From Karstenula rhodostoma CBS 690.94 (Eukaryota > Ascomycota > Dothideomycetes > Pleosporales > Didymosphaeriaceae), in the NCBI GenBank assembly GCA_010093485.1, contig MU001493.1, positions 2,468,937-2,532,936 on the forward strand: 64,000 nucleotides of DNA, read 5' to 3'. Each line of letters opens with the position of its first letter. Positions within the stretch are counted from its first letter, which is position 1. The notes below the pieces were generated by a model. It worked only from the letters and a program-made list of their open reading frames with translations. It had not been told where the DNA came from and did not search any database. Below, piece after piece: positions 33,614 to 63,750 of this stretch. The position numbers and the translations under genes are program-made.

Positions 33614-35548
33614 ATGGTACACCACCACACGCAGTTCATGGCTGGACCCTCTTCCTTGAAGTCTAGCCGCTACATCTCCGCCCTGATGGACTCCCAGGCC
33701 TCAGCCCAAGTCACTACCCGCAACTCACACAAGTTGAGGGGCCCCACCTACGAGCAAGTCTTTGCTATTCTCACCGACGCACGCAACACGGTCAAAATGA
33801 ACTACACGCTCATCACCTCCGCCCGAAACAAGGACTCGAAGACCGCCATGTCCTCCCCACATCTCACACATGCCTTCCTCGCCAATCTCAAGGATGGCCT
33901 GGACGAGTGTGAGGCACGCAAGGAGTCTCCACAGGACATCCTCAACTCGCGGATCGAGATCGAGCACGATGTCCTGGAGTTCTGGAACCGGTCGGGCCGG
34001 ATGAGTGAGAACAAGGACGCTGTGGACGAGGACATCGAGAACTTCCCGCTGCAACTTGCTGCGGTGGAGGCGGGGATCAAGTTCCGGCCGCCCCCGATGC
34101 TGAAGGAGGTTCGTGAATCAAAGGTCGATGGGCAAGGCGCGGAGGTCCAGCAATCAAAATTCCCGCGTCAGGGCTATGTTGTTCCTGGGCAAATTCAAGA
34201 TGTAACTGTTCAGCTCCCGCAATCGGCACCTCCGCGTCCATTCTCTGGCACTGGGATGCCTATGCAACTTCAACGTGGCGCTAGACAGGATCAACCACTT
34301 CCGCCTTATAGTGCAGTCTTTGGCGCTGATACATCTCAGCAAGCCCAAGAGTCTCGCGCGCCGTTCCAGCATACGTCTACTGAGTCGTACAAGCTCCTCG
34401 GGGCGCATGCGTCTGCTGTAGCGTCACCGATTGACTACACCCGGTTTTTGGGCTCAGTAGGTCGGGCGAAGTTCCAGCAGAAGGGTTCATTCGGACCGGC
34501 TGGCATCATGGATGGCACCTCGTGGATGGACTCGCCAGTTTCCACTGGTGCGTTTTCTGGAGACGAGGATGATGAAGACCGCTATGGCAGCATGAAGGGC
34601 AGCAACACGTTGCCGGCAAGCTTCATCCAGACCCCAGCCCCAGTTCAGCAGACTGGAGTCATTGGGGCCTGGGGCGACAGCTTCAACAACTTCTCGCACC
34701 CGGATGTCCTAGGCGATCGAGGCCTTCTTTCATCTGGATACCCAGTTCATCTGCCGCAACCTCAATCGGCCGCCATCCCACAGAAGCGTAACCATACGGC
34801 CCTTGATGCGCAAGAATCCCAAGCTGAAGCGCCAAAGAAGCGTAAATACGAAAAGGGCGGATATGTACCGGCTGGAATGGGGATGCTCCTCAATGACACG
34901 CCCTCGACCAACATCCCGTTCCCGCGCATCGTGATGGACCAACCAGCCAATGTCACCATCGTGGAGCTAATGGTCTTCTTCCCGCGCTACATCCACAGTA
35001 TCGACGTAATCGAGCGCATCGCCAGCAACGGCGGCACCGGCATTCTCCTCGCACGGATCATGAACGCGCATCGCAACCTCGCGGCACCGCTGTACGGTAA
35101 CTATTTCTGCAAGGCCCTGCAGGCTCGGATGCGCAAGATGGGTGACAAGACTGACGACGGGGGCTACGACTACACCAAGTGGACGCTCAGCAGCCACCAG
35201 TCCCTCCCTGGCCACGACGCGGATAGTCTGGACATCGCTGGTATGCGCACGAAGCTTGAGATCGAGAACTTCCCCAAGGTGCACGATGCCCGGACCTATC
35301 CGATTCCGTTCAAGAAGCTGGCTGTGGGCGTGAAGAAGTTGCCGTCGGGATACGATGCGCTGAACTTGACGCGCTGCGTTCGGTATGCGGTGGCGCACCC
35401 GGACGAGGACTGGATTTACCCGGATGACTTTCGCCGCATGGTTGGGCATCTCTCCGGCCATCTCTTGGGGGAGGTTTTCCCAGTCCCGGTTACTCAGAAC
35501 CACTTCGATCGGGAAGCCTGGCTTCGGTGGAGGAACGTCCGGGGCTAG
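33614..35548 (+). CDS. Orphan modular protein A (modules M1-M2-M3)
   Basis: 644 aa, single exon, start MVHHHTQFMAGPSSL. Not a family I can name. M1 lies at about 41-160: LRGPTYEQVFAILTDARNTV, IEIEHDVLEFWNRSGRM and ENFPLQLAAVEAG. A Gln/Pro/Ser-rich linker (160-430) holds the basic NLS-like APKKRKYEKG at about 404. M2 begins at about 433 with STNIPF, then ANVTIVELMVFFPRYIHSID and VIERIASNGGTG. M3 is at about 560-625: YPIPFKKLAVGVKKLPSGYD, ALNLTRCVRYAVAHPDEDW, YPDDFRRMVGHLSG. The chain ends soon after M3, so M4 is absent. No signal peptide or membrane helix; the NLS-like motif suggests the nucleus. First of the paralogue cluster and the clearest reference copy. Confidence 0.8.
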   Translation: MVHHHTQFMAGPSSLKSSRYISALMDSQASAQVTTRNSHKLRGPTYEQVFAILTDARNTVKMNYTLITSARNKDSKTAMSSPHLTHAFLANLKDGLDECEARKESPQDILNSRIEIEHDVLEFWNRSGRMSENKDAVDEDIENFPLQLAAVEAGIKFRPPPMLKEVRESKVDGQGAEVQQSKFPRQGYVVPGQIQDVTVQLPQSAPPRPFSGTGMPMQLQRGARQDQPLPPYSAVFGADTSQQAQESRAPFQHTSTESYKLLGAHASAVASPIDYTRFLGSVGRAKFQQKGSFGPAGIMDGTSWMDSPVSTGAFSGDEDDEDRYGSMKGSNTLPASFIQTPAPVQQTGVIGAWGDSFNNFSHPDVLGDRGLLSSGYPVHLPQPQSAAIPQKRNHTALDAQESQAEAPKKRKYEKGGYVPAGMGMLLNDTPSTNIPFPRIVMDQPANVTIVELMVFFPRYIHSIDVIERIASNGGTGILLARIMNAHRNLAAPLYGNYFCKALQARMRKMGDKTDDGGYDYTKWTLSSHQSLPGHDADSLDIAGMRTKLEIENFPKVHDARTYPIPFKKLAVGVKKLPSGYDALNLTRCVRYAVAHPDEDWIYPDDFRRMVGHLSGHLLGEVFPVPVTQNHFDREAWLRWRNVRG

Positions 35549-37309: not shown

Positions 37310-37315
37310 TATATA
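37310..37315 (+). promoter_or_regulatory. TATA box of gene B
   Basis: TATATA 167 nt before the ATG at 37477, followed by C/T-rich then A-rich leader. Confidence 0.45.
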
Positions 37316-37476
37316 CATTCATTTAATCTTCTTCACTCAGCATCGAAAGGTTTCACAACCCAAAAACCAACAGAAAAACCCAAATTTGAACTTGAGCTAG
37401 CCTCAGATCAACGTTAGAACTCTTTGGTTTCTTTTGGAATCTTTCACACCAAGTTAAAATCGAGATTTCTGGAAAC

Positions 37477-40400
37477 ATGTCTGGAAACATGTCCGGAAAC
37501 GGCGGGTCGGCTCATGTGCCTTCTCACTCGATTACCACGTACGAAGAACTGTATTCTCTGATCGAGCAAGCAAACGTGAGAATCCTGGAACAATACGAGG
37601 CGATTAGGCCCCACCTTGCGGAAGCACTTCGTCGAAACACCCAAAGTGCTCGAGATGCATCTCTATCTTTTCGCCCGCCCCTAGCACAAGATATTCTTGT
37701 AGATTACCTGTGGTTAGAGTTTGACATATTGCAGAGCTGGAATATAACTCGCATGGGATACGTCGTAGCTTTCGATTCGGAGGAGGGCCGGTACGATATC
37801 TACGACGATCATCACAGCTTCCCGCTCAGGAACGCTGCTAGGCAAGCGAATGTGACAGTACCTCCGCGTCAGTGGTTGGGTTTTCGTAGGGACCGTTTTC
37901 GTGGCAACCCGAATCATGACCATGAGCCCTTCGAACATTCTGATATCGTCGAACGGGTCCTGGATCGGGTCGACCAAGAGTTCTCGGATAGCGAATGGAA
38001 CGTTATTCGTCTGCATGGCTTGGAATGGAGGTTCGAGGACCAGTCAGGGCCTTCGGCTCCTCCACCACGGCAACCCGTTCCTGCAGTACGTCCCCCTCAG
38101 GCCGCTGCCCAATCTCGGCCTGTAAACCGTCCTCCCCCTCCGCAAGCTGCTGCAGTCCATCATCAAGCACCCCGGGCTCCCCCGCATCCGGTCACTGTCG
38201 CTTCCCAAACTGGGCCCTCCCGACTTCAGGTGCCGCAAGCTTCCTCGGCTCGTCCCGTTCCGCCGGTTGCACCCAGGCAACGGCCAGCTCCACCCGCTGT
38301 GCTGCCACAGCCAACTGCCCCGAGCGTCAATCCCCCTGTCCAGCGAGCACCGGCACAAGCGCCCGCACACCCAGGCCCTGCAGCACTCCCTAACCCTCCA
38401 GCTATAGCTCAGCCAGCGGTAGGACGTGTGCCCAGACAACACGTTGGGCTTAAGGACGCTCCGTCGCCGAACATTCCGTTTCTGCCTGGTGTAAACTTGA
38501 CGCTCGCGGAGATCATGACCTTCCTCCCGAACCACCTGCGAAGCGTTGACATGATTGACCGCGTTCACCAAAACACGGGTAAGTACAACCAGAAAGCTCT
38601 TGCCAATATGGCTACAGCACATCGCCGAGATGCTGTATCTGACAACTTCATCTGGAACAGTATCGTCAAAGCTGAGATGAACAAAGAGTATCGGAATCAG
38701 GGTTGGACTGCGCAAAACCACATTCGTCCTAGACACCCGCGGTATGTACTTGGTTCGCTTGCTGTTGGGGGTATGAGAACGCTGGAGGGGGTCAATCATG
38801 CACGGGGAAGCGTGCCCAAGTACCCGAGCAACCCCATCCCATTCAGGAACCTGGCAAATAACGTGAAACACCTTCCTGTGGGTAACGACGCGCTCGACCT
38901 GACTCGTTGCGTGAGTTGGGTACTGCAGAATCCCGGTGCAAGTGCCCAATACATGTTCCCGAATGACTACGCCACAGTGCTGATCATAGTCGGGGGTCCT
39001 CATGCTGTCACCAATAACCATCTGGACATGGCTGCAGTTGGTAGATGGGACAAGGGCACCCCTGGTAGCATTCGCGCGCAGGGCAATAACCCTCAGTGGG
39101 AAACGGAATGTCGCCAGCATGAAGCCAGGTACTGGCCAGCGCAACCGAACGCACCAGCAGTTGGGCAAAACAATGCAGTGCAAGCGGCCATCCCAGCGCC
39201 TGCAAATGCTGGGGCTCAACTCGGATTGCAGGCGCCGCCGCAAATCCTTCCACCACCTAGGGCTGTCCATGGTGCTCTAGCGCCGCCCCCGGGCCCTGGA
39301 CGCTCCGGCATGAACAATAGGAACATGCTGCAAGGTGTTGCCCCAGCTTCGTCAAGCTCTAGGACGAGCAACGCGTTCCCGGGCACTGCTGTCCCGCCAC
39401 CTGGTTCTGGATCTCACAATGGCATGTTTGGCCCAAGAGCAGGGCCATTGAATTCTGGAACCAGGAAGCGTCCCAGAGTCAACCACCAAGACGATGGAAC
39501 ATCTTCCGGGGCCGATGAGGATGCATCACCGCATCAGAAGCGGGTCCGCACGCAGGGCCCAGACTCCGGACATCGCATGGGCCCTTACTACGGCCAGAAC
39601 CAAAAGCACAGCCAGCCTCGGCAACACGGCACGGGTCAGCCCTCAATGGTTGACCAGTTCCGGCGGTACGGCGTGAGCCTCCATGGCTATCCAACCGGGG
39701 AGCAGACTCATCGGCATCAAGCCGTTGGTGCGTCTGTAGGAAACTCGCGTCCCACAGAGCCTCAGGCGCGGTCAGAATATCCGGACCATGTACCATTCCA
39801 GCCGTACTATACATACGGATACCGGCCGTATAGTCCGGCTAGAAACGGACGAGGTGGATACCAGCAGACCCAGCATGCTGAAGAAAACCCACAGCCTCAG
39901 GGTTACTCGGAGTATGCAGGTTATGCACCAGCGCAGTCATACGATCCGTACATTAGCCAGCAGTATGGCGCAACTGCAACCGGGGCCCATGGAAACCAGT
40001 CACCCGCGCAGCCTGGAGAAAACCCACAGCCTCAGGGATACTCAGGGTACGCAGGGTATGCACCAGCTCAACCATACGATCCGTCGCAAGACAATCGGTA
40101 TGGAGCAAGTGCGTCCGGGCTTGGTGGATACCAGTCACCCGCGCAGCCTGTAGAAGTGCTGCAGCCCCAAGCAGGTCCAGAGTCTGAGCAGATTCCTATC
40201 GATCCAAGGCTGCTCAACCCTCCTGCTGCTGCGCCTGCTGGGCGGCATAAACGCCATCGTCCAAGTGAAGAGGAGACCGCTTCCTCAGAATTCGATAGCA
40301 GGAAGCGGCCTCGCCTAAGCCCAACAGAGGATGAGAGCCAGAATGTGTCGGAACCTCCACGACAAGGAGCAAGCCTCTCGGTAGCGAAGCTGCTGCAGGG

Positions 40401-40518
40401 ACAGCTCCAAAGCGAGATTGACACCACGGATTCGTTCCAGAATAACAAGGCAGGCTACAACACATACAGCGAATATGATGACGACGATCTCACGGGGGAG
40501 AATGACGACGACGAATAA
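37477..40518 (+). CDS. Orphan modular protein B (M1-M2-M3 plus long Pro/Gln/Tyr-rich tail)
   Basis: 1013 aa, single exon. The start MSGNMSGNGGSAHVPSH has two near-identical MSGN/ACATGTC repeats. M1: TTYEELYSLIEQANVRIL at about 21, LWLEFDILQSWNITRMG, and HSFPLRNAARQAN at about 114. A Pro/Ala/Gln-rich linker runs from 188 to 325. M2: SPNIPFLPGVNLTLAEIMTF at about 330, then LPNHLRSVDMIDRVHQNTG. M3: NPIPFRNLANNVKHLPVGND at about 450, ALDLTRCVSWVLQNP, and FPNDYATVLIIVGG. The rest (from about 560) is low complexity with NLS-like TRKRPRV (about 663) and SRKRPRL (about 942) and two tandem 45-residue repeats built on GYxxYAGYAPAQxYDP. It also has IPIDPRLLNP, like IDPALL in D and I. Largest member of the cluster. 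Confidence 0.8.
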   Translation: MSGNMSGNGGSAHVPSHSITTYEELYSLIEQANVRILEQYEAIRPHLAEALRRNTQSARDASLSFRPPLAQDILVDYLWLEFDILQSWNITRMGYVVAFDSEEGRYDIYDDHHSFPLRNAARQANVTVPPRQWLGFRRDRFRGNPNHDHEPFEHSDIVERVLDRVDQEFSDSEWNVIRLHGLEWRFEDQSGPSAPPPRQPVPAVRPPQAAAQSRPVNRPPPPQAAAVHHQAPRAPPHPVTVASQTGPSRLQVPQASSARPVPPVAPRQRPAPPAVLPQPTAPSVNPPVQRAPAQAPAHPGPAALPNPPAIAQPAVGRVPRQHVGLKDAPSPNIPFLPGVNLTLAEIMTFLPNHLRSVDMIDRVHQNTGKYNQKALANMATAHRRDAVSDNFIWNSIVKAEMNKEYRNQGWTAQNHIRPRHPRYVLGSLAVGGMRTLEGVNHARGSVPKYPSNPIPFRNLANNVKHLPVGNDALDLTRCVSWVLQNPGASAQYMFPNDYATVLIIVGGPHAVTNNHLDMAAVGRWDKGTPGSIRAQGNNPQWETECRQHEARYWPAQPNAPAVGQNNAVQAAIPAPANAGAQLGLQAPPQILPPPRAVHGALAPPPGPGRSGMNNRNMLQGVAPASSSSRTSNAFPGTAVPPPGSGSHNGMFGPRAGPLNSGTRKRPRVNHQDDGTSSGADEDASPHQKRVRTQGPDSGHRMGPYYGQNQKHSQPRQHGTGQPSMVDQFRRYGVSLHGYPTGEQTHRHQAVGASVGNSRPTEPQARSEYPDHVPFQPYYTYGYRPYSPARNGRGGYQQTQHAEENPQPQGYSEYAGYAPAQSYDPYISQQYGATATGAHGNQSPAQPGENPQPQGYSGYAGYAPAQPYDPSQDNRYGASASGLGGYQSPAQPVEVLQPQAGPESEQIPIDPRLLNPPAAAPAGRHKRHRPSEEETASSEFDSRKRPRLSPTEDESQNVSEPPRQGASLSVAKLLQGQLQSEIDTTDSFQNNKAGYNTYSEYDDDDLTGENDDDE
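39883..40152 (+). repeat. Tandem 135-bp coding repeat in gene B (two copies)
   Basis: ENPQPQGYSxYAGYAPAQ recurs with a period of exactly 135 nt (45 codons): CCC of the first unit at 39888, of the second at 40023. The units are over 80 percent alike by eye and in frame; QSPAQP ends both. Confidence 0.8.
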
Positions 40519-40699
40519 TAAGAGGTTTGGTTCGTCACTTCGTGAGTCTGCGCTTGCTTCCGCACTCTGTAGCCCGCTGGAAATCGTTTTCATGTTTGCT
40601 GTTGTATGATATCGCAGCCCAGATCTCTGCCGACATCACAGCTTGAGACTCTAGATTGATACGTCCAAGGACGTCTCTAGAGTCAACATAGCTGGGTGT

Positions 40700-41010: not shown

Positions 41011-42294
41011 TACGATGAGGAACGTTCATCTGGATAAGATCTGGGCTGTTATTCACTTGGGCTGTGTCTTCAAATGCTGTTGTTCCACTTCTTGGCGCTA
41101 CGTTGGGGGTCCTGCCGGTTGGGGATATGGGTTGGATTTTCATGCTGACGTTGATGTTGACATTCAAGAATTGGATTCGCGATGGAATTTGTGTGTTTGC
41201 ATCACGTTAGAGTTACGCTTATGTTTTCAAGTTTGGTTATTGTTTAGAGCATAATAAATGAAAGAAATACTCTTGAAATATTAAATTCATATTTATATCA
41301 CCTATATATTGTAGAGATTCACTATGAGGTAGGGTGGCTCAATGAAGTAGGGGGACAAGAAGGTGTTGTGCTTTGCCCATGCGCAAAGTGACCAAAAAAG
41401 CGGCCAAGGCGCTATATCACCTAATGTTACCACAGCACTCCAATTAGATTTACAGGTTCCACATAACTACCGAAACAATAGTTTGGGTTTTTCTCTTAAC
41501 TGCTTTTACGCCTGGTCCTTTTGGTGATGCGGTTCAAAGTGCACCTTTTCAACGCCAGGAGTGAATATGAACGAAATCTCCACTGACAGCGGGCTTCACT
41601 CACACATTTAGCCTCAGCTCCGGCGTATTCTCTTGAGATAGCTCTTGGCAGGCTATTATTGAACACAGTGGAACAATCCTACACAGATCAGCAGTAGTCT
41701 ATTTTGAACTTTCAATCTGTAGAAAGTCGACGGTTCGACTTCTCCCAGCGGTCCATCTCCAAGAAGTCGTTTTTCTGGCACGTTAAATGCTCTTGCACAC
41801 CGAGGAATGTAGGAAGAGGTCATTAACGTATTGGTTCTACAAAGTCGACGGAAGAGAACCAATTTGTGTGCTAGCCGCTTTCGTCTCTACCATCTCTTCA
41901 CCGACCGCTACATGAAGAATGCATTCCAGGAGAGAAACAAGGACAAAAGGATAAAGTTGTCGTGTGTGTGGAGTGCAGAAATGATCACAAAAAGGTGTCC
42001 CCCCATATTACAATACATATATCAAAGAAGAGAATACCCTAATTCTACTTCTACAGACTGCACAAAGCGCGCACACCATAGGCCCAGGATCCCCAATTGA
42101 GCGGCAACCATGTATCAAAGTACCCTAACTGGGGAGACTTGAGAACATAATGGTTACACAAGAATTGGAAACGCTTGGACTCCATGCGTGAAAAGGCATT
42201 GTATATACACTAAGATGCGGGTGAAAGTTGGGTCGACTTCTCACAACGCTAGTGCAGGGCCCCCACGGGAGGCTCCATCGTCATACTACCTCTA
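41011..42294. other. Intergenic between B and C, no supported gene
   Basis: AT-rich around 41,260-41,310; otherwise small ORFs only. Upstream part of gene C starts at 42295. Confidence 0.45.
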
Positions 42295-42302
42295 TATAAA
42301 CA
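42295..42302 (+). promoter_or_regulatory. TATA box of gene C
   Basis: TATATAAA 154 nt before the ATG at 42449. Confidence 0.55.
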
Positions 42303-42448
42303 TTTACCCAGCATCGGAGTATATTCCAACTCACCCTCGAAGCGCCTCCGCAACCGCAGAGCGATTGGAGACTAAACACACCCCGATAGTACCTTCTTCG
42401 ACAGACCGAACGCCAATCACGTTCCTACATCAACATCTTACCGCAAAG

Positions 42449-43924
42449 ATGAGTGTCTTCCGTAACCACCAGGTCCAGATGCTCGGAAACCCCGAAGACG
42501 CTCCTAAACGCCACGAGCTGGAGATGGTCGCGAACCTTGCCGAGCGTCGTATCGCCCTGAATAGTAGGGGCCCAGCGGACCACCTCTACCATCTGTTCTA
42601 CGCCCTACATAACAACGTCCAAGAGATGCGTCAAGCCTTGAGCGCTCCTGCAGATGGTCCATATGCCTTTCGCCGCATTCTAGACGAGTTCGTCATGATC
42701 GAGCATAGCATCGTAGAGAACTGGAACTTGTCCCGTTTGGGGGGTGTCATCCCACGCTTCCCTGCGGGGGACATCTCAAATAACCTCAATAACTTCCCCC
42801 TTCGAGGTGCAGCGAATGATGTCGGCCAGCATGAGGGCTTCGCGTACATTCCACCAAGCTTGCCGCTCCGTCAGCGTACCACTGGCAATGGACAACCCCT
42901 TCCCTTCGGCGCTGCTGCCGGCCAGGTGAATCAGCAAAACCGTGCAGTCGTTCGACCAGAGCCCGCGATGGTTCCGCGTCCGGCACGCATCCAGCAGCTC
43001 ATCCGTGAACCGGCTAAGCGTCATATGCCCCGAGAGCTCGATATGAATCAGAGTGTGGTCCAAGCGCCGATTGGACGCAATGCTTCAACTGGAGACAAGG
43101 CTCCGGCTGCGATGAAGGCACCCGCTGGACTAAAGGCTCCTACACAACCCCAGGCTCCGATCGTGTCCCAAATCCCGACTAAGAGCAACACACCCCTCGT
43201 CCAAAAGACGAACCTCCAGAAGGTCATGGAGTGGAATCCACAGACGAGCGACGAAGAGAATGGCCCATTCCAGGGCCCCAAACACGCGGAGGCCACGGCC
43301 CGCCAAACCGCCCATGCTGCACTGGAAAATGACACCCTGGTCTGCCATGAAACAGTTGTCAACGGCAAGATGAACACCACTGGTGAGATTGCTGAGATGG
43401 GAATCTCGTCCATCTCAGGGGCTTCGTCCGAGACGTACGCGGCCGTCAGCGAGGACGAGACTCCGACGGCTCAGCCTGCATCGGACGAGCATGATGCTCA
43501 AGAGGTTGTGGGCAATGATCAGCCAAATGACGTGCATGCAACAGACGCTGAATCTGTCCTTTCGGAAGTTCCAGATGACCTGTCGGATCGGAATCCTGAG
43601 AACCTAGGCCAGGACAACATCGACGACCGCCAGGGTGATGCTGAGTCTTCTGCTTTGACTGAAGTGAGTGACTTAACACTGCTGGACGACGGAGACAAGC
43701 CCAAGGCTCAGGCCGACTCTGGTGCAGAGGATACGGACGGTAACGAGTCAGACGACGAGGCCTCAGACGACGAGGACGCGGAGGACCGGCAGTCCAATGA
43801 CGGAAATGAGTCCGAGACGGAGAACGCCGACGACCTGGGGTTTTTGTCTGATACGACTACCTCTGAGGACTACGACTCTACGAGCGACTACGACCCTGCT
43901 CCGAAGAAGCGCCGTCTTCGTTAG
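42449..43924 (+). CDS. Orphan modular protein C (M1 with acidic C-terminal half)
   Basis: 491 aa from MSVFRNHQVQMLGNP; the frame is open to 42188 but the TATA box lies inside that extension, so the later ATG is preferred. M1 at about 35-140: ADHLYHLFYALHNNVQEMRQ, ILDEFVMIEHSIVENWNLSR, and NNFPLRGAANDVG at about 115, aligning with A and B. M2 and M3 are missing. The middle is Pro/Ala-rich with a short repeat (APAAMKAPAGLKAPTQPQAP). The last third is strongly acidic (many Asp, Glu and Ser) and ends in the basic PAPKKRRLR. M1 attached to an acidic region and NLS-like end recalls nuclear regulators or histone-binding tails, but this is inference. Single exon. Confidence 0.78.
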   Translation: MSVFRNHQVQMLGNPEDAPKRHELEMVANLAERRIALNSRGPADHLYHLFYALHNNVQEMRQALSAPADGPYAFRRILDEFVMIEHSIVENWNLSRLGGVIPRFPAGDISNNLNNFPLRGAANDVGQHEGFAYIPPSLPLRQRTTGNGQPLPFGAAAGQVNQQNRAVVRPEPAMVPRPARIQQLIREPAKRHMPRELDMNQSVVQAPIGRNASTGDKAPAAMKAPAGLKAPTQPQAPIVSQIPTKSNTPLVQKTNLQKVMEWNPQTSDEENGPFQGPKHAEATARQTAHAALENDTLVCHETVVNGKMNTTGEIAEMGISSISGASSETYAAVSEDETPTAQPASDEHDAQEVVGNDQPNDVHATDAESVLSEVPDDLSDRNPENLGQDNIDDRQGDAESSALTEVSDLTLLDDGDKPKAQADSGAEDTDGNESDDEASDDEDAEDRQSNDGNESETENADDLGFLSDTTTSEDYDSTSDYDPAPKKRRLR

Positions 43925-45212: not shown

Positions 45213-47075
45213 TCAATACGATCCGTAATGATAGACGCCCTGGCTGATGGCGGTCTCACTCCACCAGCCATGATCGCGCCTCCACTGGGTAATCTGCGCA
45301 AGATGGTCATCGTACTCGGTCCAGGTTACGACATTGAAGTACAGCCATTGGTCCTTAGCCCAGCGGATGTTCTCGGCCCAATCGCTCATGTCCCTAGGGT
45401 CCGGGTCGCCGAGACGCCACAGCTCACGGAAAGGAGCCTGTGTACGGGGGCCATTGTTGAAACGCTGGGAGGAGAGTGCGGACTCCCACATCTGCTCGTT
45501 GGTGGTGCAGCTCTCTTCGGCGTAGAGCCACTTGTTGCGGTCGTCGACAACGAGGCGATTGTGGTCGAGGACAGGAGCGGGGACCTGGACGGGAGCACGA
45601 GCTTCCAAGGCGCGCGACTGGAAGAAGATAACAGGATCCATCTGGGTATATCGAACATGCACAGGGTCACCGTGAGTGTGTCCGAGAAGGGCGGGGTCGA
45701 TCATGTGGTCAGGAACGTTGGGCATTGTGGCCATGGTAGGCATGCCAGACATGGGAGTAGCATTGACGATAGGTGTGTATGCTCGGGTTGCTTTAGCGGC
45801 GCGGGGAGTCTTCGGTGTCTCCTTGTAGATGGCCTTCTGCGTGAGGCGGCGGCCCTTCATGGCTGAGGCGCGTACAGGTCGCTTAGGCTCGGGCGCGAGG
45901 AAGTCATCGCTAGTGTCGTCTTTGGCGTCGGGCAGGCTCTCTGAGTCGCTGGTATCGTTGCCAGTGAACTCGCTCTCGCCAGAAGATGCGCGGGCAGACT
46001 TGCGCTTCTTCTTGGCCGGCTCGTAGGTGTTGATATTCTTGTAAGGCGTGCTGGTATCTGAGTCTGACTCTCGCAGATCCTTCACGTCTTGCGTGGCGAG
46101 CCTACCGCTGCGACGCTTGCCGCCGCTGGCTGCGGTGTCGCGGTCTGGAGCGTTGAATTCAGCATAGCCGCGTTTCTTCGGTGTCGCGAGACGCATATCG
46201 GAGTTGTGCGTGCTGCCAGTTGTGTTTGGCGTGTCAAAGCGAACCTGTTGGACCAAGGGAGTGGCGGGAGTGGTGGGGAAGATGGGAGCGACGGGGAGTT
46301 GTTGATAGCGAGCAGCAGAAGAAATAGAGTCGGGCTCTGCTGAGTGGCGCTTGAAGGCTTGCTCGTCGGGGTGAGAGTGAGAGGCGGTCTGCGCTCCGCC
46401 AAGGTGATTCACCAGCTTTCGGAAATCAACGGGAAAGAGCCAGGACTCGCTGGGGTGGTTGACAGCGTGCAGAACGCAGCGCGTGAGGTCGAGCGCGTCA
46501 TCACCAGAAGGGTGCTGTTTGACGGCTTGAGCGAGGTCGCGAAATTGAATCGGCTCAGCCTCTACATTCTCGGCCGCCTTGGAGCCTTGCTTGGGGTGAG
46601 TGACACGCGGCGTACGGAAGCTGGAGACACTGAGAGAGGCAGGATCGTGCGGAGTTGCGGCGTCTGGGTGGACGTCGCTGCGCTTGTGTTTACCGGCAGT
46701 CCATTTGCCGACTCCAGAAGCTCGCATAGCACATTGCAACATGACGCATATGGAGTTCATGCTAATAGTGTTGTTACCGGGCAAGGTCCGGTATTTGTTG
46801 ACTACGTACAATTAGTGTAGGCCTGTGAAAAGGTATTGACGAGACTTACGCATGCCTGCAATGACCTTGGCCTTGCCGCTGTTTAGCACGAAACGGTCGA
46901 TGACATCCACGGACTTGAGCCAATGCGGAAAGTATGCCAGGATCTCAGCGGCGGTAGCATTGCCGGAGTGGAACGGCATGTTCCAGTGAGGGCTGGTCGG
47001 ACCAAAGGCATCATTGGCGGCACGGACGTGACGCGGACGCGTGCTGCCAGAGGTCGTTTTCGACTTGGGAGCCAT
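45213..47075 (-). CDS. Orphan modular protein D (M2-M3-M4), two exons
   Basis: Exon 1 is 46850-47075, exon 2 45213-46801; the 48-nt intron (donor GTAAGT, branch CTAAT, acceptor TACGTAG) joins AGM to LNKYRTLPG in frame and lies inside M2. Length 604 aa, start MAPKSKTTSGSTRPRHV. M2: NMPFHSGNATAAEILAYFPH, SVDVIDRFVLNSGKAKVI (about 32-75). M3: EPIQFRDLAQAVKQHPSGDD, ALDLTRCVLHAVNHPSESW and FPVDFRKLVNHLGG (about 158-205). A Ser/Asp/Lys-rich middle has NLS-like KKKRKSARAS. M4: NGPRTQAPFRELWRLGDPDP, DMSDWAENIRWAKDQW, TWTEYDDHLAQITQWRRDHG (about 525-590). M1 is absent. IDPALL occurs at about 425. It diverges from E with 675 bp between the starts. Confidence 0.8.
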
Positions 47076-50560: not shown

Positions 50561-52543
50561 CTAGTCCGATCGGCTAGAGTCGATCTGCATACGAGAACTA
50601 CCGGAAGAGCCCTCGAACGGCTCATTGTGCTTGATTGCCTTCTCCAGATACTCTGGCGCAGGCTCGCTGAAAAGTTGCTCATAGTCCTCGGCGGTAAAGC
50701 GAGGCGGTGGAACATATACACCAAGCTGCTGCTGTAACGTAGCTATAGAATCATCCATCGCCCGTTGCCGGTCGCCTTGCGATTGTTCCCAGATTTCTTC
50801 ATAAGCTTCAGCTTGCAGTTTCAGACTGATCTGAGCCAGATGCTCCGGACTGTGGTGCCAATCGATATCTTTTTGATCCGGCCGACGAGCGTACCAAATG
50901 GCCGATCCAAGTTGAAAAGCCTCAGAGGTTGTGTCGTTGCTAGGGAGAGACTCAACATCTAGATCACGAAGCAGTTGGGTGCTTTGATTCTGTCCCTGGT
51001 GCTCGCGGGGAGACTTCAACGGTGTGCGAGTCATTGTGGAATCTGCCTTGAAATCCTGCGTGAGCTGTGATGCGTTGTGCGGAGAGCGAGAGACAGATGA
51101 ATGACTGGTCTTAGACATCCGAGGCGTACCCTGTGGGGGAGACTTCGGCAGCGGAGAAGAGCTCTCGGATGGGATGGACCAGTCTGTATCCTGCCGCGAT
51201 CCTGGTCGAGTTCGATCGCCACTGGACTCGCCCCTTCCATCCTTCTCTGCCTGCACACCCTTCCGGAGTGCCTTCTTCGCCTTGTAAAGCTTTCTATATC
51301 GCATGACAATAGATTTGTCTCGGTGTTGCTGGGTAATCAGGGTGGGCCCGATAGTTCTAAGTATGTCGATGAGATCGTCCGGAAACATCAGATCTCGGCC
51401 AGGAAACGTCTTCTTCGCCTGATCGCTGGTTGCGAACTCGATCGAGCGGGTAAGGTCTGCAGCGTCGTTACCTGTTGGAATCTTCCTCACACCTTGCGTG
51501 AGCATGCGGAACGGCACGCTTGTCGGAGCTGGTGCGCGGACACCTTCCTTGATAATCCGATCGGGTACGAACGCGTTCATTGAGATGTTCTTCTCGTCCC
51601 AGTCAGCTGGTTTCGTTTGATTCCTCCGGGTCCAAAGTGTCTTGATCTCCTTCTTGGTCATTTGACGCCAATTTGATGGTCGCAACGCATCTTGATACCC
51701 TTTCGCAATAGTGGCGACGGTTTGAGAGGCAACGCGGTGAATGTCGTTGATCTCGGCATGTATTGGGTTTTCCAAGCCGTTGTTGACGAAGCGTCGCGCG
51801 ATTGTGCTATTACAGTGGAGCATTGGTAGGAACGTAATAATCTCGACAGCCGTGAAGTTCAATGCCGGTTTGTAGTTCTTCGTGAACGCCTGGAAGTTGT
51901 AGTCGTAACGGCCGGATTTATTGAACCCAGCTTCATCCTGGACAACAGCAGGTGGGGCGAGGCTGGTGGTGTCGGTAGGATGGCTTGAGCCTTTCTGAGA
52001 AGGCGCAAGCGCTAGGCTGGTAAACGGCACCATAGGACCACGTGCAGTAGGTAGCGCGCGGCCAAGTTGGTTGTGAGCAGACTCCTGTAGACGTGGCGTG
52101 CGATCGAAACCGATGCTGGGAGAAGCAGTGGCGGACCGCAGTTGCAGTTGCATTCGATCTGTCTCAACGCCAGCCGGTCCCTGGGGCAACCTCTGCGGGT
52201 ACGTGGCTATATTGTCGTCTCTAATAATGTTTTCGTTGACAGATTCGTCTCGGTGAAGGTTTTGTTGATGCAGCAATTGTTCAACGAATGCACCTTCCGA
52301 GGCGTATTGCAGCTGCTCCTGCCAATTTGGCTCTGCACCTGCCACGCGCTGCTTCTTGGAGATGTGCGCATCTGCATCCTCACCCGGATCTGAGCGCATA
52401 TTTCCATCGCCATCCAGATGCTCGTGAGAGTGTTCAGCTGCCATGTTAGGAGAACGGTCAGTGACCGATGGGGTGGATGGAAGCGGCCAACTGATGCGTT
52501 TGACGTAGGGCGATTTGTAGCGAGAAGACATACAGATCTCCAC
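50561..52543 (-). CDS. Orphan modular protein F (M2-M3 and M4-like)
   Basis: 660 aa, single exon, start MEICMSSRYKSPYVKRIS; later in-frame Mets (MSSRYK, MAAEHS) are possible starts. The N-terminal 220 residues are disordered, with SKKQRV at about 63. M2 at about 225-285: PALNFTAVEIITFLPMLHCN, STIARRFVNNGLENPIHAEI. M3 at about 340-410: SVPFRMLTQGVRKIPTGNDA, ADLTRSIEFATSDQAKK, LMFPDDLIDILRTIGP. A Ser/Pro/Thr-rich linker follows. M4-like at about 540-585: GSAIWYARRPDQKDIDWHHS, PEHLAQISLKLQAEAYEEIW. M2 and M3 keep the Asp-Leu-Thr-Arg and phenylalanine-proline landmarks but are clearly diverged from A and B. M1 not detected. Confidence 0.78.
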   Translation of the reverse strand: MEICMSSRYKSPYVKRISWPLPSTPSVTDRSPNMAAEHSHEHLDGDGNMRSDPGEDADAHISKKQRVAGAEPNWQEQLQYASEGAFVEQLLHQQNLHRDESVNENIIRDDNIATYPQRLPQGPAGVETDRMQLQLRSATASPSIGFDRTPRLQESAHNQLGRALPTARGPMVPFTSLALAPSQKGSSHPTDTTSLAPPAVVQDEAGFNKSGRYDYNFQAFTKNYKPALNFTAVEIITFLPMLHCNSTIARRFVNNGLENPIHAEINDIHRVASQTVATIAKGYQDALRPSNWRQMTKKEIKTLWTRRNQTKPADWDEKNISMNAFVPDRIIKEGVRAPAPTSVPFRMLTQGVRKIPTGNDAADLTRSIEFATSDQAKKTFPGRDLMFPDDLIDILRTIGPTLITQQHRDKSIVMRYRKLYKAKKALRKGVQAEKDGRGESSGDRTRPGSRQDTDWSIPSESSSPLPKSPPQGTPRMSKTSHSSVSRSPHNASQLTQDFKADSTMTRTPLKSPREHQGQNQSTQLLRDLDVESLPSNDTTSEAFQLGSAIWYARRPDQKDIDWHHSPEHLAQISLKLQAEAYEEIWEQSQGDRQRAMDDSIATLQQQLGVYVPPPRFTAEDYEQLFSEPAPEYLEKAIKHNEPFEGSSGSSRMQIDSSRSD

Positions 52544-54494: not shown

Positions 54495-55724
54495 TCAGCC
54501 CTGAGGTCTTGCCTGCATCCCAACCCCAGTCAAACCAAGCCGCTCTGACAAAGTCCCTACATGCAACACTGACCAGTCCACCTGTCTTTGACTAGGCTGC
54601 TGTGCGTAAATGATCATCTGGTCTAACCCAACCGGAAAGATCGGTGCTCTCGCTACTCTTCGAACATAATCCGGGTCAAGTTCCCGCAGCAATGTGTGTC
54701 CAGTCGCGCTGAGTTTGTTTTTCAGGATCATCTTCACCTGGACCGGGTCGTCGCACCAAGGCCCACTGTTCACAAGCGGTGACCTTGCGTATCTGATCAC
54801 ACAGGAAAAAGGGCTGGAATCTTTCGCTTCCGGAATTCGAAAATTATCCCCAGCCAATTCCAAAGAGGACCAAGCGCGGTGTTCAAGCTCGAAGTATCCT
54901 CGCTGTTGTGCGAGCTTGAGGACTTGAACTACGTCCTCCACTAAAGCTGTGTTCACATAAGAATCTAAATTGTGTCTATTGATTGGAAGAGGAAACTTAC
55001 TTGTAAATGGTGTGGAAGGGCGGTCAAGCTGTGGATTATGTCTGATAAAACGTGAGGCACGAGCCATATTTCCGAGGTCATTAGGATGACATTGGAACTG
55101 GAATAGCCAGTGTATAGGTTTCACCACATGCGGCATGCTAGAAGGTTCCAAAGGTAGTCTTCCCATCTGAGGGACATGCCTTTGGGGGAGTTGTGGATGA
55201 CTGTTGTGCATCATTTGTGAAGCCGCGATAGTCGGATATGGCTTGCTGCCTTGCGAAGCAGTACCTCGGGGAGTGTGCTGAGCTGGAATCTTAATAGCTT
55301 GCTTCACTGGGCGCGTAGAAAGAATTTGCTTTGCTGGAGGCTGTGAGGCCTCAACCAAGAGCGAGCTCGGCAATGAAGCCGATGCACCTAGCAGCTTCAA
55401 TCCATATGCAGATTGAGTTGATGCCGTAACGACTGGTTCAGGCACATAGACCTCGAGCGGCGGCATTGATTCCAGACCATCAGTCATTGCTGCTTTCTCT
55501 TGCGCACCAACTTCTGGAGCTGCCACAGGCTGCTGACGGCCACCGATTGTGCCGCTAATGGCTTCTAACAATAGTCTCCTGAAAAGCTCGTTGGAAGGGT
55601 CATTGTCCGCGCAGTCTGGTGTCTTGAAGAACTCGCCGTTGTTGAAGTCGTCAGGATTGGAAACTGCAGGGCTCGCTGTCCCATCGGCGAAGTTGCCGGC
55701 TTGTGATGTTATCTGTTCAGACAT
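54495..55724 (-). CDS. Orphan protein H, diverged member of the modular cluster
   Basis: Open frame of 409 aa from MSEQITSQAGNFADGTA. A 54-nt in-frame stretch 54947-55000 starts GTAAGTTTCC and ends GAACACAG and may be an intron, giving 391 aa; its branch site is weak. N-terminal 200 residues are disordered. The middle keeps diverged landmarks of M2 (DLGNMARASRFIRHNPQLD compared with IARRFVNNG in F) and M3 (FSCVIRYARSPLVNSG compared with CVRYAVAHPDEDW in A). The end resembles the M4 tail of F: QPSQRQVDWSVLHVGTLSER against QKDIDWHHSPEHLAQI. The Asp-Ala-Leu-Asp-Leu-Thr-Arg core is lost. Kinship is inferred by eye and should be tested by profile search. Confidence 0.6.
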   Translation of the reverse strand: MSEQITSQAGNFADGTASPAVSNPDDFNNGEFFKTPDCADNDPSNELFRRLLLEAISGTIGGRQQPVAAPEVGAQEKAAMTDGLESMPPLEVYVPEPVVTASTQSAYGLKLLGASASLPSSLLVEASQPPAKQILSTRPVKQAIKIPAQHTPRGTASQGSKPYPTIAASQMMHNSHPQLPQRHVPQMGRLPLEPSSMPHVVKPIHWLFQFQCHPNDLGNMARASRFIRHNPQLDRPSTPFTSKFPLPINRHNLDSYVNTALVEDVVQVLKLAQQRGYFELEHRAWSSLELAGDNFRIPEAKDSSPFSCVIRYARSPLVNSGPWCDDPVQVKMILKNKLSATGHTLLRELDPDYVRRVARAPIFPVGLDQMIIYAQQPSQRQVDWSVLHVGTLSERLGLTGVGMQARPQG

Positions 55725-57304
55725 TGTGACACCCGTCTTTCGCGCCGAGTTAAGTGCTGAAGGTGGAGTGAGGAAAAAGGTAAAAGACTAAGGAGTAGAG
55801 GAGTGGCGCAACTTGTGGTATTCGCTTGAAATAGAGATGAAGCTTTTGTGAAAGGAGGACAGAGGAATAGATGATAAAGCAGGCAGCTGTACGTTCAGAA
55901 AGAAATCGCCAATCGAGTCAGACTCAATGCCCAACAGATTGGCGCTACAGCGCAGGAAAATCGGCCTAAAGCGCATGAAATCTTTGATCAGCGGTGTGCA
56001 TACCACGGTTCACGATATCTACAAACGCTCAACCATGCGACGATGTGGACACGGGTGCGGAACAGTTTCTTTAACCTTATAGCGCTTGACCAATCAAAAC
56101 AAGACTGCAATGTTCTGCTGTTGCAGATGGATTGTTTGGCATTCCAGTTTTGAATTCAATTCCACTACGGTACATGAGTCTCAGTATAGGCTCAAACCTT
56201 GATCTGTAGATGTTTGATGGGCGTACGTTCTTTCCAAATGGCCACACTCATGATTACGCCTGCTGCGCGTCTCCCAGAGCGTCCACGCAGTCGTTAGCTG
56301 TGCTGGGCAAACAATCCATTTTTCAGAGATACTCAACACAACTGCTTGAAGTGGTACGGGCTGCCCCAAATCGCCGGGTCCTCCAGATGCCTTCCATATA
56401 AAGACATGATGTCGCAGGTGCTTGTCGTTCGAGCCCGCAGATTAGTCAAGCCCCAGTCGTTGGAAAGCGATCCAGCCAGGTCCCTCGGTTCGCAGCGAGC
56501 GGTAGCGAAACTAGCATTGTGGGTGATCCACGGGACACTTAGGTTGGGAATCCACCTGCGACGGTAGCTAGAAGATTGCGACACGTGGTACGCTAAAAGG
56601 CGGGCGTGTTGGGCTTGTGGCTGACTTAGCGCTTATCAGTTGCGGTTAGACCGTCCTCTGAGGAGTCCACGACATGCGTCTTTCAGGAGGATCAATAACA
56701 TCGCCTTTCGACCTCATGATAGCGAAGTCGATAATGCAGGCATAACATGCAGGTCATATGGAATCTATGTGTAAAGTTGTGCGCATTTACCTAGTGGGGA
56801 TGCCAGCATCATCAAAGTCTGGTCGACAGCGGGATACAATCTAGCATCCAACTATCACGAAACGGTAGTACAAGATTGTATGGAAGAGGTTTTCATGAGG
56901 GTTAAGTGGTGAGCATTTGGGAATAAGGGTTCTATAACTGTGAACGGGGTATCAAATTGTAAAGAGAGATGAAACTACGTGCTACCAGACAACGCCTCAA
57001 GCTGGTGACTGTTCATCATGACCGCATTTACCTCTGCCATCCTTGAGCACACTCATTGAAAGCCTCATACCATAGATCGTGTTGGACGATCTTGTTGGTA
57101 GTATCCTCGGCAGCAATGCATGCAACCAACGTGTAATAGTAAAAAAACACTTATGCCGTGTTCGATACCCCGGTCATATGCAGAGACGCCGTAATTTCGA
57201 CGCCTTCTTGAAGAAGAAGAGAGAAGTGCGGAAACCCTTCGAGGAGGAGCCGAGAGTCCATGTTATCTCGACCGTCCCAATTCGGCTGCAAGAAGTGTCC
57301 AAGA
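55725..57304. other. Intergenic between H and I
   Basis: 1.6 kb without a supported gene; small ORFs on both strands have no recognisable content. Confidence 0.45.
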
Positions 57305-58893
57305 TTAGTTTGAACCACGCTCCATTCCAGGGTTGGCCGCCTGCCAAGCCTCGAAGATCCAGACACCCGCAGCCTTGACCAGCCGATCCATCTGTTCCAG
57401 ATCCAGGTTGGGCTTGTTCCAGTCGAGGGAATCCATGAGCTGCATATGCTCAACGCAGTACACCCAGTCGATCTGGCTCTGCAAACCCTTCTGCGCAAAG
57501 TCGACCCTACGAGCAAGGGAGTTGTCAATCTGATGGCCTGGATAAACGGCACGCAGATTGCGAACAAGAGGCAAGTTATCCACGGCCAAACCAACAGGAA
57601 GCTTGCGGTTGAGTTCCTTGACGAGTTCATTGTGCAAGCATCGAGCGATGATGTCGTAGTGGTCGTCAAAGGTGAAATCGGTCTGGCGGCCGCGAGGGCT
57701 ATTGGCAACGCGGTAGACCAAGGCATCTTGCGAGTAGTCGTCGGCCGATGGCGGATAGGCGTCGCGTATGAGGCCGCTCTTGGGCTTCTTTGAGTTGTAG
57801 TTGGCGGGAGTGTACTTCAACTTGGGAGTGTCATCGACAGGCTCGAGCTTGACGCGAGGCTGAGAGTGCTCGCGCTTGACCTTCTTGCGCCGCGGCATCA
57901 TGGATGAGGTCGTGGGCGGCAAGTCGTGGCCATCGACAGGGGCTGCAGATGTGAGCCGGGTGCGACGGGGAGTCAGGCGTTTCCGGAAGACCCCAAGACG
58001 GTAGAAGTTCTTGATCTTGAACTCCGCCGAAGCCCTATTCAGAGCCTCCATCGTCGGACGCGGAAGTGCACGCTGGAGTGTGACCTGGAACTCATGCTCG
58101 AACTGCTCCTGCCCTGGCAACGGTGTCGGTACATCAGGAGAATAGAGACCGTCCAGCAAAGCTGGATCAGACGGGAGCTCCTGATGTCCAGATGGGTTGG
58201 GGTCTGCGAAAAGGTAGTCGTCCCCAAATTCACGAGCGAAATCGAAGATCTCCGAGGCGGGGACTCCATACTGGAGAGCGGGGTCCATTGCTACCGTCGC
58301 ATAACCGGACACACCATCCTTTCGGGACGGGGTGATGTCCTCGAGCGAGGCGCGGTCGACATGAGAAATGTTCAAGGTCTCTGGAATCATGGTGGCCCAA
58401 TTTTCATGGCCGACGTCCAGGTCGTACGTGGAGAACGGGCGACCAATGCGCTCATACGGCTGCATGGCCACGCCGAAGCCCATCGTAGCATCGTCGAAGA
58501 CGGGCAGCTCGAATGGCACTGTGTTGTGCTGCCGAAGGTTAGGATCTGCATGGGATTCATACGTGGGGAGCATACCACAAACGGTGCGGCCTCACACGCT
58601 TCAGAAACAGCATGGTCGAACGACCGGAGGCGTGATGCGAGCTTCATGTCTTCCGGAGACAGAGGCGAGTCGACGAAGGGGTTGCCGTCTTCGAGAAGAG
58701 CTGGGTCAATCGCCCCATCGCCAGTCGTGGAGACTCCTAGGTGCGTAGCAGCGTGGTCGCCGCCCATCTTCTTGGAAGCCATGCCAAGAGTTGATCTGGT
58801 TTGACCCGGGAAAGATGGCGCAACAGGATCAGAGCTCACGATGAACAGGCTCGCACGCTTGCTGGGGCTTTGGGAGGAGTCACGCGTCGCCAC
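57305..58893 (-). CDS. Orphan protein I, diverged member with basic region, two exons
   Basis: Exon 1 is 58576-58893, exon 2 57305-58528; a 47-nt intron (donor GTATGC, branch CTAAC, acceptor CGGCAG) joins APFV to HNTVPFELPVF in frame, 513 aa in all. IDPALLEDG (about 62) and DPALLDG recur, as IDPALL in D. Residues 230-280 are basic (TPRRTRLT, PRRKKVKREHSQ), NLS-like. The C-terminal 150 residues are helical: FDDHYDIIARCLHNELVKEL, NLPLVRNLRAVYPGHQID, and QSQIDWVYCVEHMQLMDSLD, which resembles the M4 tail of F and H. M2 and M3 are not clearly recognisable. Role unknown, possibly nuclear. Confidence 0.7.
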
Positions 58894-62119: not shown

Positions 62120-62127
62120 TATATTTA
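62120..62127 (+). promoter_or_regulatory. TATA-like box of gene J
   Basis: TATATTTA 167 nt before the ATG at 62287, the same spacing as for gene B. Confidence 0.4.
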
Positions 62128-62286
62128 ACATCCCACCGGAACTCATAGCATTCGGTACAACCCTCTACCCTCTCATCAGCAAGACAACCCAAAAAAAAAT
62201 ACTGCAACGCATATCGCCGGTTGCACCTAAACAGGACATACTCAAGTGGAAGCCTTCACACACCTTGGTGCAGAAACGTAGGACTC

Positions 62287-63750
62287 ATGGAACCCGTCAA
62301 CGAGTCTACCCCTCTCAACGACCTCGGCATTCAGTCAGTCCAGCATGACCTGGACTCTCACAATGTTGCCGCAACTTCGGGCGGATGGAATGAACATACT
62401 TTGCGCACGCTCAGCTCTCTGAACTCGAATCCTTACAACCAAGACAACGAGGAAATGGAGATGCGAGGATTCATTGGGTTTCCTTCGGCAGGCGCGGTCA
62501 TTGATTACCTCCTAGCTCGGGAGTTTCAGCACATCGATTGCGTCTGCGTGGTCGACGTACATGATCTGAAGAACCTGGCCCCTGTAAACGCTGGTCTTCC
62601 GGAAGCCAACCTTGTCATCCCAACTTTGACCCGCGGTTACATCATGGCTGCACTTACGGAAAACTCACCCCACGCCGAGCATGTGGCAGAATACATCGGA
62701 AAGCCGCCAGAGCCTGCTGGCGATGCCGATGAATTCGACATGCCGATGGGTTTCGCAGAGTGGTGGCTCTCTGTGGGTGGTAGGTTCTGGGTGCGAGGAC
62801 TGGACAAGGACGGCAACCCCCCAGCTTGCCCGGATATGCCGGTCGACCTCAATGTCCAGATGGAGGACGACGTCAATATGGATACACCACTAGACCTCGA
62901 CGTCGAAGTGCCGCAAAACTCTGCGCAGGTCGATGTTCAAGCTGCTCACCAACAGAACGCTGCGCCGTACAGTTCCAGGACCGCGGCTAGTGCCAAGCAT
63001 TTACGCAGCATCAGTGGTCGTTACGGCCTCTACATGCATCACACCTTTTCGACAGGCTCACTCCGTATGTGGAGCGAGATGGGCATTGAACTTCCAGCCA
63101 CCGTGGCCCAGCAGCACATCTCTTACCACCCGATCTTCAGCTTCGCGCCCGTCTACAATGTCGACCTGCGTCTGCTAGGCGACATCCCTGTCACAGACGT
63201 TGAGCTTCTGACCTTTTTCCCCGACCACCTGGTGTTCTGGCCTGACATGATCTACCGCCTTTGCAGTGCGGGCTGGCAGACTGCCGGTATGCTGCGGGTG
63301 ATGTACGCTGCTCGTGGCGTGAATACCTATTCCGCAGAGGATAAAGGGGTGATGGCGCGCGATAACTCCCGCGTGGGCCATTCTCGTAGGATCCTAGGCG
63401 TGAAAGTCGAGGAGGAGCCCCGCCTGGAGCCGTATACCGACCTGGCCATGGCCAACTGGCGGGAACCGCGTAAGGGAGACGTCATGAAGTACACCTGCCT
63501 CCGGAAACTCACAGACTACTACGTCTCAGACCTCGCAGACGGCGTACTACCGTACATGTTCCCTGATGGAGAGAATGGTGGCCCGCTAACTGGTGCCATC
63601 CGGATCACACGCACACACCCGGACGATGCTGAGGTCAAGGCTCTGAAGCTCAGTGGCGTCTCTGCCTTTCTGAAGAAGCATAGTCTTTACCCCGCTGCGG
63701 TTTCGGCCGGGCCACAGAACCCGCCCACGCCAGTTCAGAAGCAGACCTAG
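62287..63750 (+). CDS. Orphan modular protein J (M2 and degenerate M3)
   Basis: 487 aa, single exon, start MEPVNESTPLNDLGIQS; the frame is open to 62221. N-terminal third has a globular-looking part (RGFIGFPSAGAVIDYLLARE, IDCVCVVDVHDLKNLAPVN, MGFAEWWLSVGGRFWVRG) not seen in the other members. An acidic linker (about 195-230) follows. M2 at about 300-345: IPVTDVELLTFFPDHLVFWP, DMIYRLCSAGWQTAGML. M3 is degenerate (about 415-460): DLADGVLPYMFPDGENGG, AIRITRTHPDDAEV. M4 absent. Ends PPTPVQKQT. Right-most member, 20 kb from A but with the same promoter spacing. Confidence 0.75.
   Translation: MEPVNESTPLNDLGIQSVQHDLDSHNVAATSGGWNEHTLRTLSSLNSNPYNQDNEEMEMRGFIGFPSAGAVIDYLLAREFQHIDCVCVVDVHDLKNLAPVNAGLPEANLVIPTLTRGYIMAALTENSPHAEHVAEYIGKPPEPAGDADEFDMPMGFAEWWLSVGGRFWVRGLDKDGNPPACPDMPVDLNVQMEDDVNMDTPLDLDVEVPQNSAQVDVQAAHQQNAAPYSSRTAASAKHLRSISGRYGLYMHHTFSTGSLRMWSEMGIELPATVAQQHISYHPIFSFAPVYNVDLRLLGDIPVTDVELLTFFPDHLVFWPDMIYRLCSAGWQTAGMLRVMYAARGVNTYSAEDKGVMARDNSRVGHSRRILGVKVEEEPRLEPYTDLAMANWREPRKGDVMKYTCLRKLTDYYVSDLADGVLPYMFPDGENGGPLTGAIRITRTHPDDAEVKALKLSGVSAFLKKHSLYPAAVSAGPQNPPTPVQKQT

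What the first reader, a model, noticed from the sequence alone, without database searches (positions are those of the whole stretch)
33614..63750. Cluster of orphan modular proteins (A, B, C, D, E, F, H, I, J) sharing four unnamed modules
Directly seen: M2 (N-x-T-x-x-E-x-x-x-F-x-P, then I-x-R) recurs in A, B, D, E, F and J; M3 (F-R-x-L-A-x-G-V-K-x-x-P-x-G-x-D-A-L-x-x-T-R, then P-x-D) in A, B, D, E, F and weakly J; M4 (GPRTxAPFR, WAENxRWA) in D and E with echoes in F, H and I; M1 (WN ... FPLR-x-A-A) in A, B and C. I know no named family with these motifs. Nine related but strongly diverged genes in 30 kb, in mixed orientation, point to local duplication with fast divergence. Basic motifs and disordered linkers suggest nuclear proteins; function is open. 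Allorecognition, genome defence or chromatin control are only possibilities.
Basis: partly seen in the sequence, partly recalled or inferred. Interest (0 to 1): 0.9.

Follow-up and report, generated by a model that had tools for sequence, protein, structure and literature searches.

The report
Unlisted fungal domain family, shuffled cluster
A 30-kb stretch of a fungal genome carries a cluster of related but strongly diverged genes built around one protein domain that matched no catalogued family or solved structure we searched; one of these genes has counterparts in many related fungi while the others look like local, faster-changing offshoots, so the cluster is real and its job is still unknown.

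Summary
The window lies in Karstenula rhodostoma CBS 690.94. D and E read as intact: each apparent break is a 48- or 63-nt intron. E is the conserved member, domain + disordered linker + M4, found in 40 named fungi, Karstenula included. A and F orthologues were found only in near relatives and unnamed sources, and change faster. C shares only M1. J keeps a decayed domain. H shares F's C-terminal module. I is not supported, so 8 of 9 genes hold. A broken relative lies 2.3 Mb away on the same contig. No Pfam cut-off was reached; PDB profiles and Foldseek found no relative. Best reading: nuclear, non-enzymatic DNA- or chromatin-associated adaptors, one conserved gene plus a local expansion with module shuffling. 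The nuclear role rests on basic motifs and an AT-hook-like core in 21 of 58 E-type proteins. Allorecognition and defence have no positive evidence.

The parts
33614..35548 (+). Gene A (644 aa, one exon): M1 - disordered-looking linker with basic run - M2M3 domain
   Evidence: relatives P0002-P0006
33743..34087 (+). M1 of A
   Evidence: leave-one-out 32.1 bits, 0 of 2000 shuffles
34940..35539 (+). M2M3 domain of A
37396..40518 (+). Gene B (1040-aa open frame): M1 - Pro/Gln-rich linker - M2M3 - long low-complexity tail with a 135-nt tandem repeat
37534..37860 (+). M1 of B
38470..39054 (+). M2M3 domain of B
42143..43924 (+). Gene C open frame: M1 followed by an acidic tail ending in PKKRRLR; no M2M3 found
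42587..42832 (+). M1 of C
   Evidence: leave-one-out 33.3 bits, 0 of 2000 shuffles
45213..47075 (-). Gene D (604 aa, two exons): M2M3 - basic linker - M4
46802..46849 (-). 48-nt intron of D (GTAAGT...ACTAAT...TACGTAG) that holds the in-frame TAA
46341..46979 (-). M2M3 domain of D, interrupted by the intron
45255..45452 (-). M4 of D
   Evidence: 61.7 bits, 0 of 2000 shuffles
47751..49184 (+). Gene E (456 aa, two exons): M2M3 - linker with RGRP core - M4; the widely conserved member
47793..48362 (+). M2M3 domain of E (folded as window 47793-48386: pLDDT 93.5, pTM 0.90)
48483..48494 (+). AT-hook-like RGRP core in the linker of E
48523..48585 (+). 63-nt intron of E (GTAAGT...GATAG); the database model P0013 splices this point differently
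48777..48983 (+). M4 of E
50561..52444 (-). Gene F (627 aa, P0053): N-terminal stretch without known domain - M2M3 - F-type C-terminal module
   Evidence: relatives P0067, P0072, P0074, P0076
51290..51862 (-). M2M3 domain of F
50804..50980 (-). F-type C-terminal module (FC4), possibly a diverged M4
   Evidence: hhalign to M4 only P 0.013
54495..55787 (-). Gene H open frame: F-type C-terminal module, no M2M3 found
   Evidence: 18.5 bits, 0 of 2000 shuffles
54570..54698 (-). F-type module in H (second, weaker copy at about 54726-54809)
57305..58591 (-). I open frame: no significant link to M1-M4; marginal (9 of 2000 shuffles) to the F-type module
62149..63750 (+). Gene J open frame: decayed M2M3 domain near its C-terminus
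63190..63330 (+). M2 half in J (23.6 bits, 0 of 2000 shuffles); blastp to P0102 extends to about 63627

Best explanation
The cluster is a local expansion of one conserved fungal nuclear protein, E. E joins a compact ~185-residue helical domain (M2+M3) to a C-terminal helical module (M4) through a disordered basic linker, which in many relatives holds an AT-hook-like RGRP core. Most likely the linker touches DNA or chromatin, while M2M3 and M4 bind partner proteins, so the protein is a non-enzymatic adaptor or regulator. Inferred: nuclear location, DNA/chromatin contact, adaptor role, direction E to the others.
For: Independent-profile scores far above shuffles. M2M3 predicted as one confident domain, pTM 0.90; linker residues 223-268 of P0009 under pLDDT 50. 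E-type proteins in 40 named taxa, Karstenula included; every named hit is fungal. Pattern scans of bacterial/archaeal and viral contigs gave 0 relatives from 9 and 5 candidate stretches. RGRP in 21 of 58 E-type proteins against 0.385 expected when residues 201-320 are shuffled (observed hits were counted over the whole protein). Basic runs in A, B, C, D, E, F and I. Domain found in the own genome only in this cluster and in K at significant E-values. Full-length identity with P. minitans: E 75.6%, F 54.6%, A 46.0%. The P. minitans E, A and F relatives list the same longest contig of 1,755,251 bases; E has tag PMIN01_10811 and A PMIN01_10815, a step of four as from A to E here. Conserved residues are spread and no catalytic set stands out (my reading).
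Against: No localisation, binding or expression data. M2M3 of the E-type is not basic (median pI 6.66, range 4.8-9.3), so this domain itself is a poor DNA-binding candidate there, although A, B, D, F are basic (8.8-10.0). RGRP is absent from 37 of 58 E-type proteins and from every other gene of the cluster. Basic runs are common: G, which shows no link to the family, has them too, and H has none. The tree is unrooted, B and F sit on long branches, and the grouping of the copies with the Didymosphaeriaceae E genes has only 60/59 support. Unnamed-source proteins P0102 and P0103 carry M2M3 outside the E architecture, so the expansion may be older or wider than one family.
Confidence: 0.45

Rival explanations
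1. A rapidly evolving nuclear recognition or defence locus (allorecognition, or control of mobile DNA): E is the house-keeping member and the copies are variable sensors under diversifying selection.
For: Tight cluster with shuffled end modules, faster change of A and F than of E, a broken copy and a decayed member.
Against: No HET, NACHT, LRR, RNAi or methylase domain in the ten open frames scanned; tags and shared contig suggest that E, A and F stay together in P. minitans; no population data either way.
Confidence: 0.15
2. Mostly non-adaptive leftovers: tandem copies of E drifting towards loss, with only E under strong constraint.
For: K is broken, J is decayed, C and H lack the core domain.
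Against: A keeps a 644-aa and F a 627-aa open frame; 5 A-type (two of them from P. minitans) and 4 F-type relatives keep the same architecture, at 46-62% full-length identity in the four pairs measured; D and E have clean introns. DNA of orthologues was not at hand, so dN/dS was not measured.
Confidence: 0.2
3. Domesticated mobile-element proteins: M2M3 comes from a transposon or virus and spread by transposition.
For: Unknown domain, basic proteins, several copies at one locus plus one distant.
Against: No transposase, integrase or viral family in the proteins scanned; no relative in a pattern scan of viral contigs; no inverted repeats of 40 nt or more in 32000-64000; low copy number on one contig.
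Confidence: 0.05
4. Adaptor or enzyme in the cytoplasm or another compartment, the basic runs being incidental.
For: E-type M2M3 is near neutral; motif-based nuclear prediction is weak; strongly conserved T, E, R, N, W, D positions could be a site.
Against: AT-hook-like core enriched in E-type proteins; no significant match to any solved structure, enzymes included.
Confidence: 0.15

Closest known systems
AT-hook proteins (motif recalled, no call)
   Same: RGRP core flanked by basic residues in E and 20 of 57 other E-type proteins
   Different: Motif absent in 37 of 58 and in the other cluster genes; folded part matches no family tested
Fungal HET/NLR allorecognition clusters (recalled)
   Same: Clustered, diverged paralogues
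   Different: None of their domains found in the ten open frames scanned; no polymorphism data
Uncharacterised hypothetical proteins of Pleosporales such as PMIN01_10811, N0V89_005337 and HBI42_169760
   Same: Same E architecture M2M3-linker-M4; they are the same family
   Different: No functional name in the listings; the cluster's A, B, C, F and H architectures differ from theirs

Membership tests
Any Pfam family | Score above the family's curated cut-off | tested here: not met
   Ten window open frames, D and E each by one exon; 59 E-type members, where the widest weak match is DRMBL in 3 of 59, best E 0.0086, member 1 at 14.5 bits against a cut-off of 22 (cut-offs were shown for member 1 only); six relatives and the two frames of K at E up to 0.01
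Any family with a solved structure | Profile or fold match to the PDB | tested here: not met
AT-hook proteins | RGRP core with basic flanks | tested here: inconclusive
   21 of 58 E-type proteins, E included; none in A, B, C, D, F, H, I, J
AT-hook proteins | Binding to the minor groove of AT-rich DNA | not testable with these tools
   Needs a binding assay
HET / NLR allorecognition genes | HET, NACHT or NB-ARC domain | tested here: not met
Transposon-derived proteins | Transposase or integrase domain, or terminal inverted repeats | tested here: not met
   terminal repeats shorter than 40 nt not searched

The most novel reading that the evidence does not exclude
M2M3 is a new protein fold, founding an unlisted fungal domain family with one conserved nuclear regulator in Pleosporales, and this locus is a module-swapping factory in which copies of it acquire new ends and evolve as a fast recognition system.
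Probability: 0.2. Interest if true: 0.75.

Novelty: new variant of a known kind. Interest (0 to 1): 0.5.

Why it matters
A domain of about 185 residues that folds confidently in prediction yet matches no curated family searched and no solved structure is worth a Pfam entry and a structure. E-type proteins turn up in 40 named fungi, some of them crop-associated genera (recalled), and none of the listed names gives a function. Because E is conserved and its cluster mates vary, the locus gives a ready comparison of one constrained gene with diverged copies that have swapped modules.

Tried and rejected
M4 'echoes' in H and I: not significant with the E-type M4 profile. A separate C-terminal module links F and H; I picked that piece after seeing the likeness by eye, then tested it with a profile of five F-type proteins (F and four relatives). 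I is left out of the family. G (53055-53921) shows no link by blastp or profile.

M2 and M3 as separate modules: rejected by the fold. D as a broken gene: rejected, the TAA lies in a clean intron. The age of the duplications: the tree drawing seemed to put the copies outside the E clade, but it is unrooted and an expansion on the Didymosphaeriaceae side is not rejected.

Dead ends: bacterial/archaeal and viral pattern scans; PDB and viral fold libraries (best viral E 3.3); NCBIfam and PHROGs; Pfam on seven small open frames between the cluster genes and one frame to the right of the window (the other two frames of that call were the bordering esterase and a frame beside K); seven paper searches, of which I saw listings with abstract starts only and read no paper; no listed title concerns this family. 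In one search the M2, M3 and M4 scores were lost to a pipe fault (M1 printed); all were rerun.

Rows dropped: P0013 (partial copy of E) and P0053 (F itself) from the E-type alignment; for the tree 106 rows went in and 83 with more than 140 residues of domain were kept.
Full report
Where it is. The window is G000:C2:2468937-2532936 of a 44.3-Mb genome in 29 contigs. A database protein that matches E at 96% over 86% of its length, P0013, is named Karstenula rhodostoma CBS 690.94 and lists a contig of 3,017,049 bases, the length of C2. It differs from my E at the splice point. The taxonomy places the species in Pleosporales, Massarineae, Didymosphaeriaceae.

Gene structures. A, B, C, F, H, I and J are long open frames. 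D has an in-frame TAA, but it lies in a 48-nt intron with GTAAGT, ACTAAT and TACGTAG (46802-46849). E is joined to its M4 exon over a 63-nt intron (48523-48585). The P0009 protein of Didymosphaeria variabile matches the two E exons on either side of that intron, whereas P0013 keeps part of it as coding. The genes are therefore open as far as sequence shows; no transcript data were available.

Are the resemblances real? Blastp inside the window links A, B, D, E and F at E-values from about 1e-27 to 1e-5, A, B and C over M1 (best 4.8e-6 for C), and D with E over M4 (about 1e-12). I then used profiles that did not contain the tested protein and 2000 local shuffles for each. M2 and M3 hold in A, B, D, F (0 of 2000 shuffles each); M2 holds in J (0 of 2000), M3 in J does not (641 of 2000). 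M1 holds in A, B and C (0 of 2000 each). M4 holds in D (0 of 2000), not in F (27), I (91) or H (662). H carries the F-type C-terminal module (18.5 bits, 0 of 2000); I only marginally (9 of 2000).

One domain, not two. AlphaFold on the E-type protein P0009 with 59 sequences gave pLDDT above 90 over most of residues 21-200 and a disordered linker. The E domain alone with 78 sequences gave pLDDT 93.5 and pTM 0.90. M2 and M3 are the halves of this mostly helical domain. Near-invariant positions include T11, E14, P20, R31, N35, W77, F121, T141, R142, P158 and D180 of the model.

Distribution. One single-protein search returned 7 proteins, A included; two profile searches returned 87 and 35. E-type relatives, some of them fragments, occur in 40 named taxa by my count, Karstenula included, among them Alternaria, Pyrenophora, Parastagonospora, Didymella, Plenodomus, Corynespora and Massariosphaeria. 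I looked up the order of three (all Pleosporales); the rest is recalled. Only the candidates sharing most words were scored, so absence elsewhere is not shown. A-type proteins (M1 + M2M3) came from Paraphaeosphaeria and unnamed sources, and F-type from P. minitans and unnamed sources. P0102 and P0103, from an unnamed source, carry M2M3 outside the E architecture, P0103 with a faint M1 (11 bits).

Copy number and place. In the own genome the domain is found at significant E-values only in this cluster and in K at C2:185386-187303; one search also lists two chance-level matches (E 0.30 and 0.48) on other contigs, and only the best candidates are scored. K has M1 and M3 but lacks most of M2 and changes frame. 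Its best match is P0007 of Paraconiothyrium brasiliense (E 1e-66 for one frame, 65% identity over 77 residues for the other), and P0007 matches K better than A in sum. P0007 has M1 and the whole M2M3 and lists the same 3,234,800-base contig length as that species' E, so the dispersed copy probably predates the split. In P. minitans, E and A have tags 10811 and 10815 and share a listed contig length with an F relative; A to E here is also four genes. That tags run in gene order is assumed. Profile scans of 19.8 kb to the right of the window and 19 kb around K found no further members except K; one weak M2 match beside K (11.9 bits, E 0.033, L009:4282-4404) was not followed.

Tree and rates. An 83-row tree of the domain gives clades for Didymosphaeriaceae E (7 rows), A (6 rows) and F (5 rows), each with starred support. 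B and F have long branches. The tree is unrooted; the copies together with Didymosphaeriaceae E already form one side of a branch, at 60/59, so a recent expansion is neither shown nor rejected. Full-length identity to P. minitans is 75.6% for E, 54.6% for F and 46.0% for A: of these three E changes slowest. B, C, D, H, I and J were not measured, and no house-keeping yardstick was available.

Nuclear role. RGRP occurs in 21 of 58 E-type proteins; 0.385 would be expected if linker residues 201-320 were shuffled, with the caveat that hits were counted over the whole protein. Basic runs occur in A, B, C, D, E, F and I, and also in G, which is unlinked, so they are weak evidence; H has none, and J's run lies at the very start of its open frame and may not be translated. 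M2M3 is near neutral in E-type proteins and basic in A, B, D and F. I conclude that a nuclear adaptor or regulator is the likeliest role, at 0.45.

Literature. Seven searches listed no paper whose title concerns this family; I saw listings and abstract starts only. That the family is not in print is not shown beyond these searches of an open-licence library.

Noticed in passing
L009:7387-9304 (C2:185386-187303): Broken relative K: M1 present, most of M2 missing, M3 in another frame; closest to P0007 of Paraconiothyrium brasiliense. A short-unit repeat array with a masked stretch lies just before it (L009 about 6600-6970, seen).
   Followed up: partly
L009:4282-4404 (minus): Weak M2 match (11.9 bits, E 0.033) near K, perhaps chance.
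   Followed up: no
L009:4738-6336 (minus): Open frames with a P-loop-like GSQGSGKS stretch beside K; the two frames gave no Pfam match at E 0.01. The motif reading is mine.
   Followed up: partly
window 39828-40169: 135-nt imperfect tandem repeat in B, coding a Tyr/Gln/Pro-rich low-complexity tail.
   Followed up: no
window 44492-45091: Two pairs of short direct repeats (48 and 98 nt, 82-83% identical, spacing 103 and 100) between C and D.
   Followed up: no
window 28676-29521: Macro-domain protein (Pfam PF01661, E 1.8e-42).
   Followed up: partly
window 30915-32327: Carboxylesterase gene (PF00135, E 1.5e-66) that borders the cluster on the left.
   Followed up: partly
window 53055-53921: G, a 288-aa open frame inside the cluster without link to M1-M4 or to any family tested.
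   Followed up: partly
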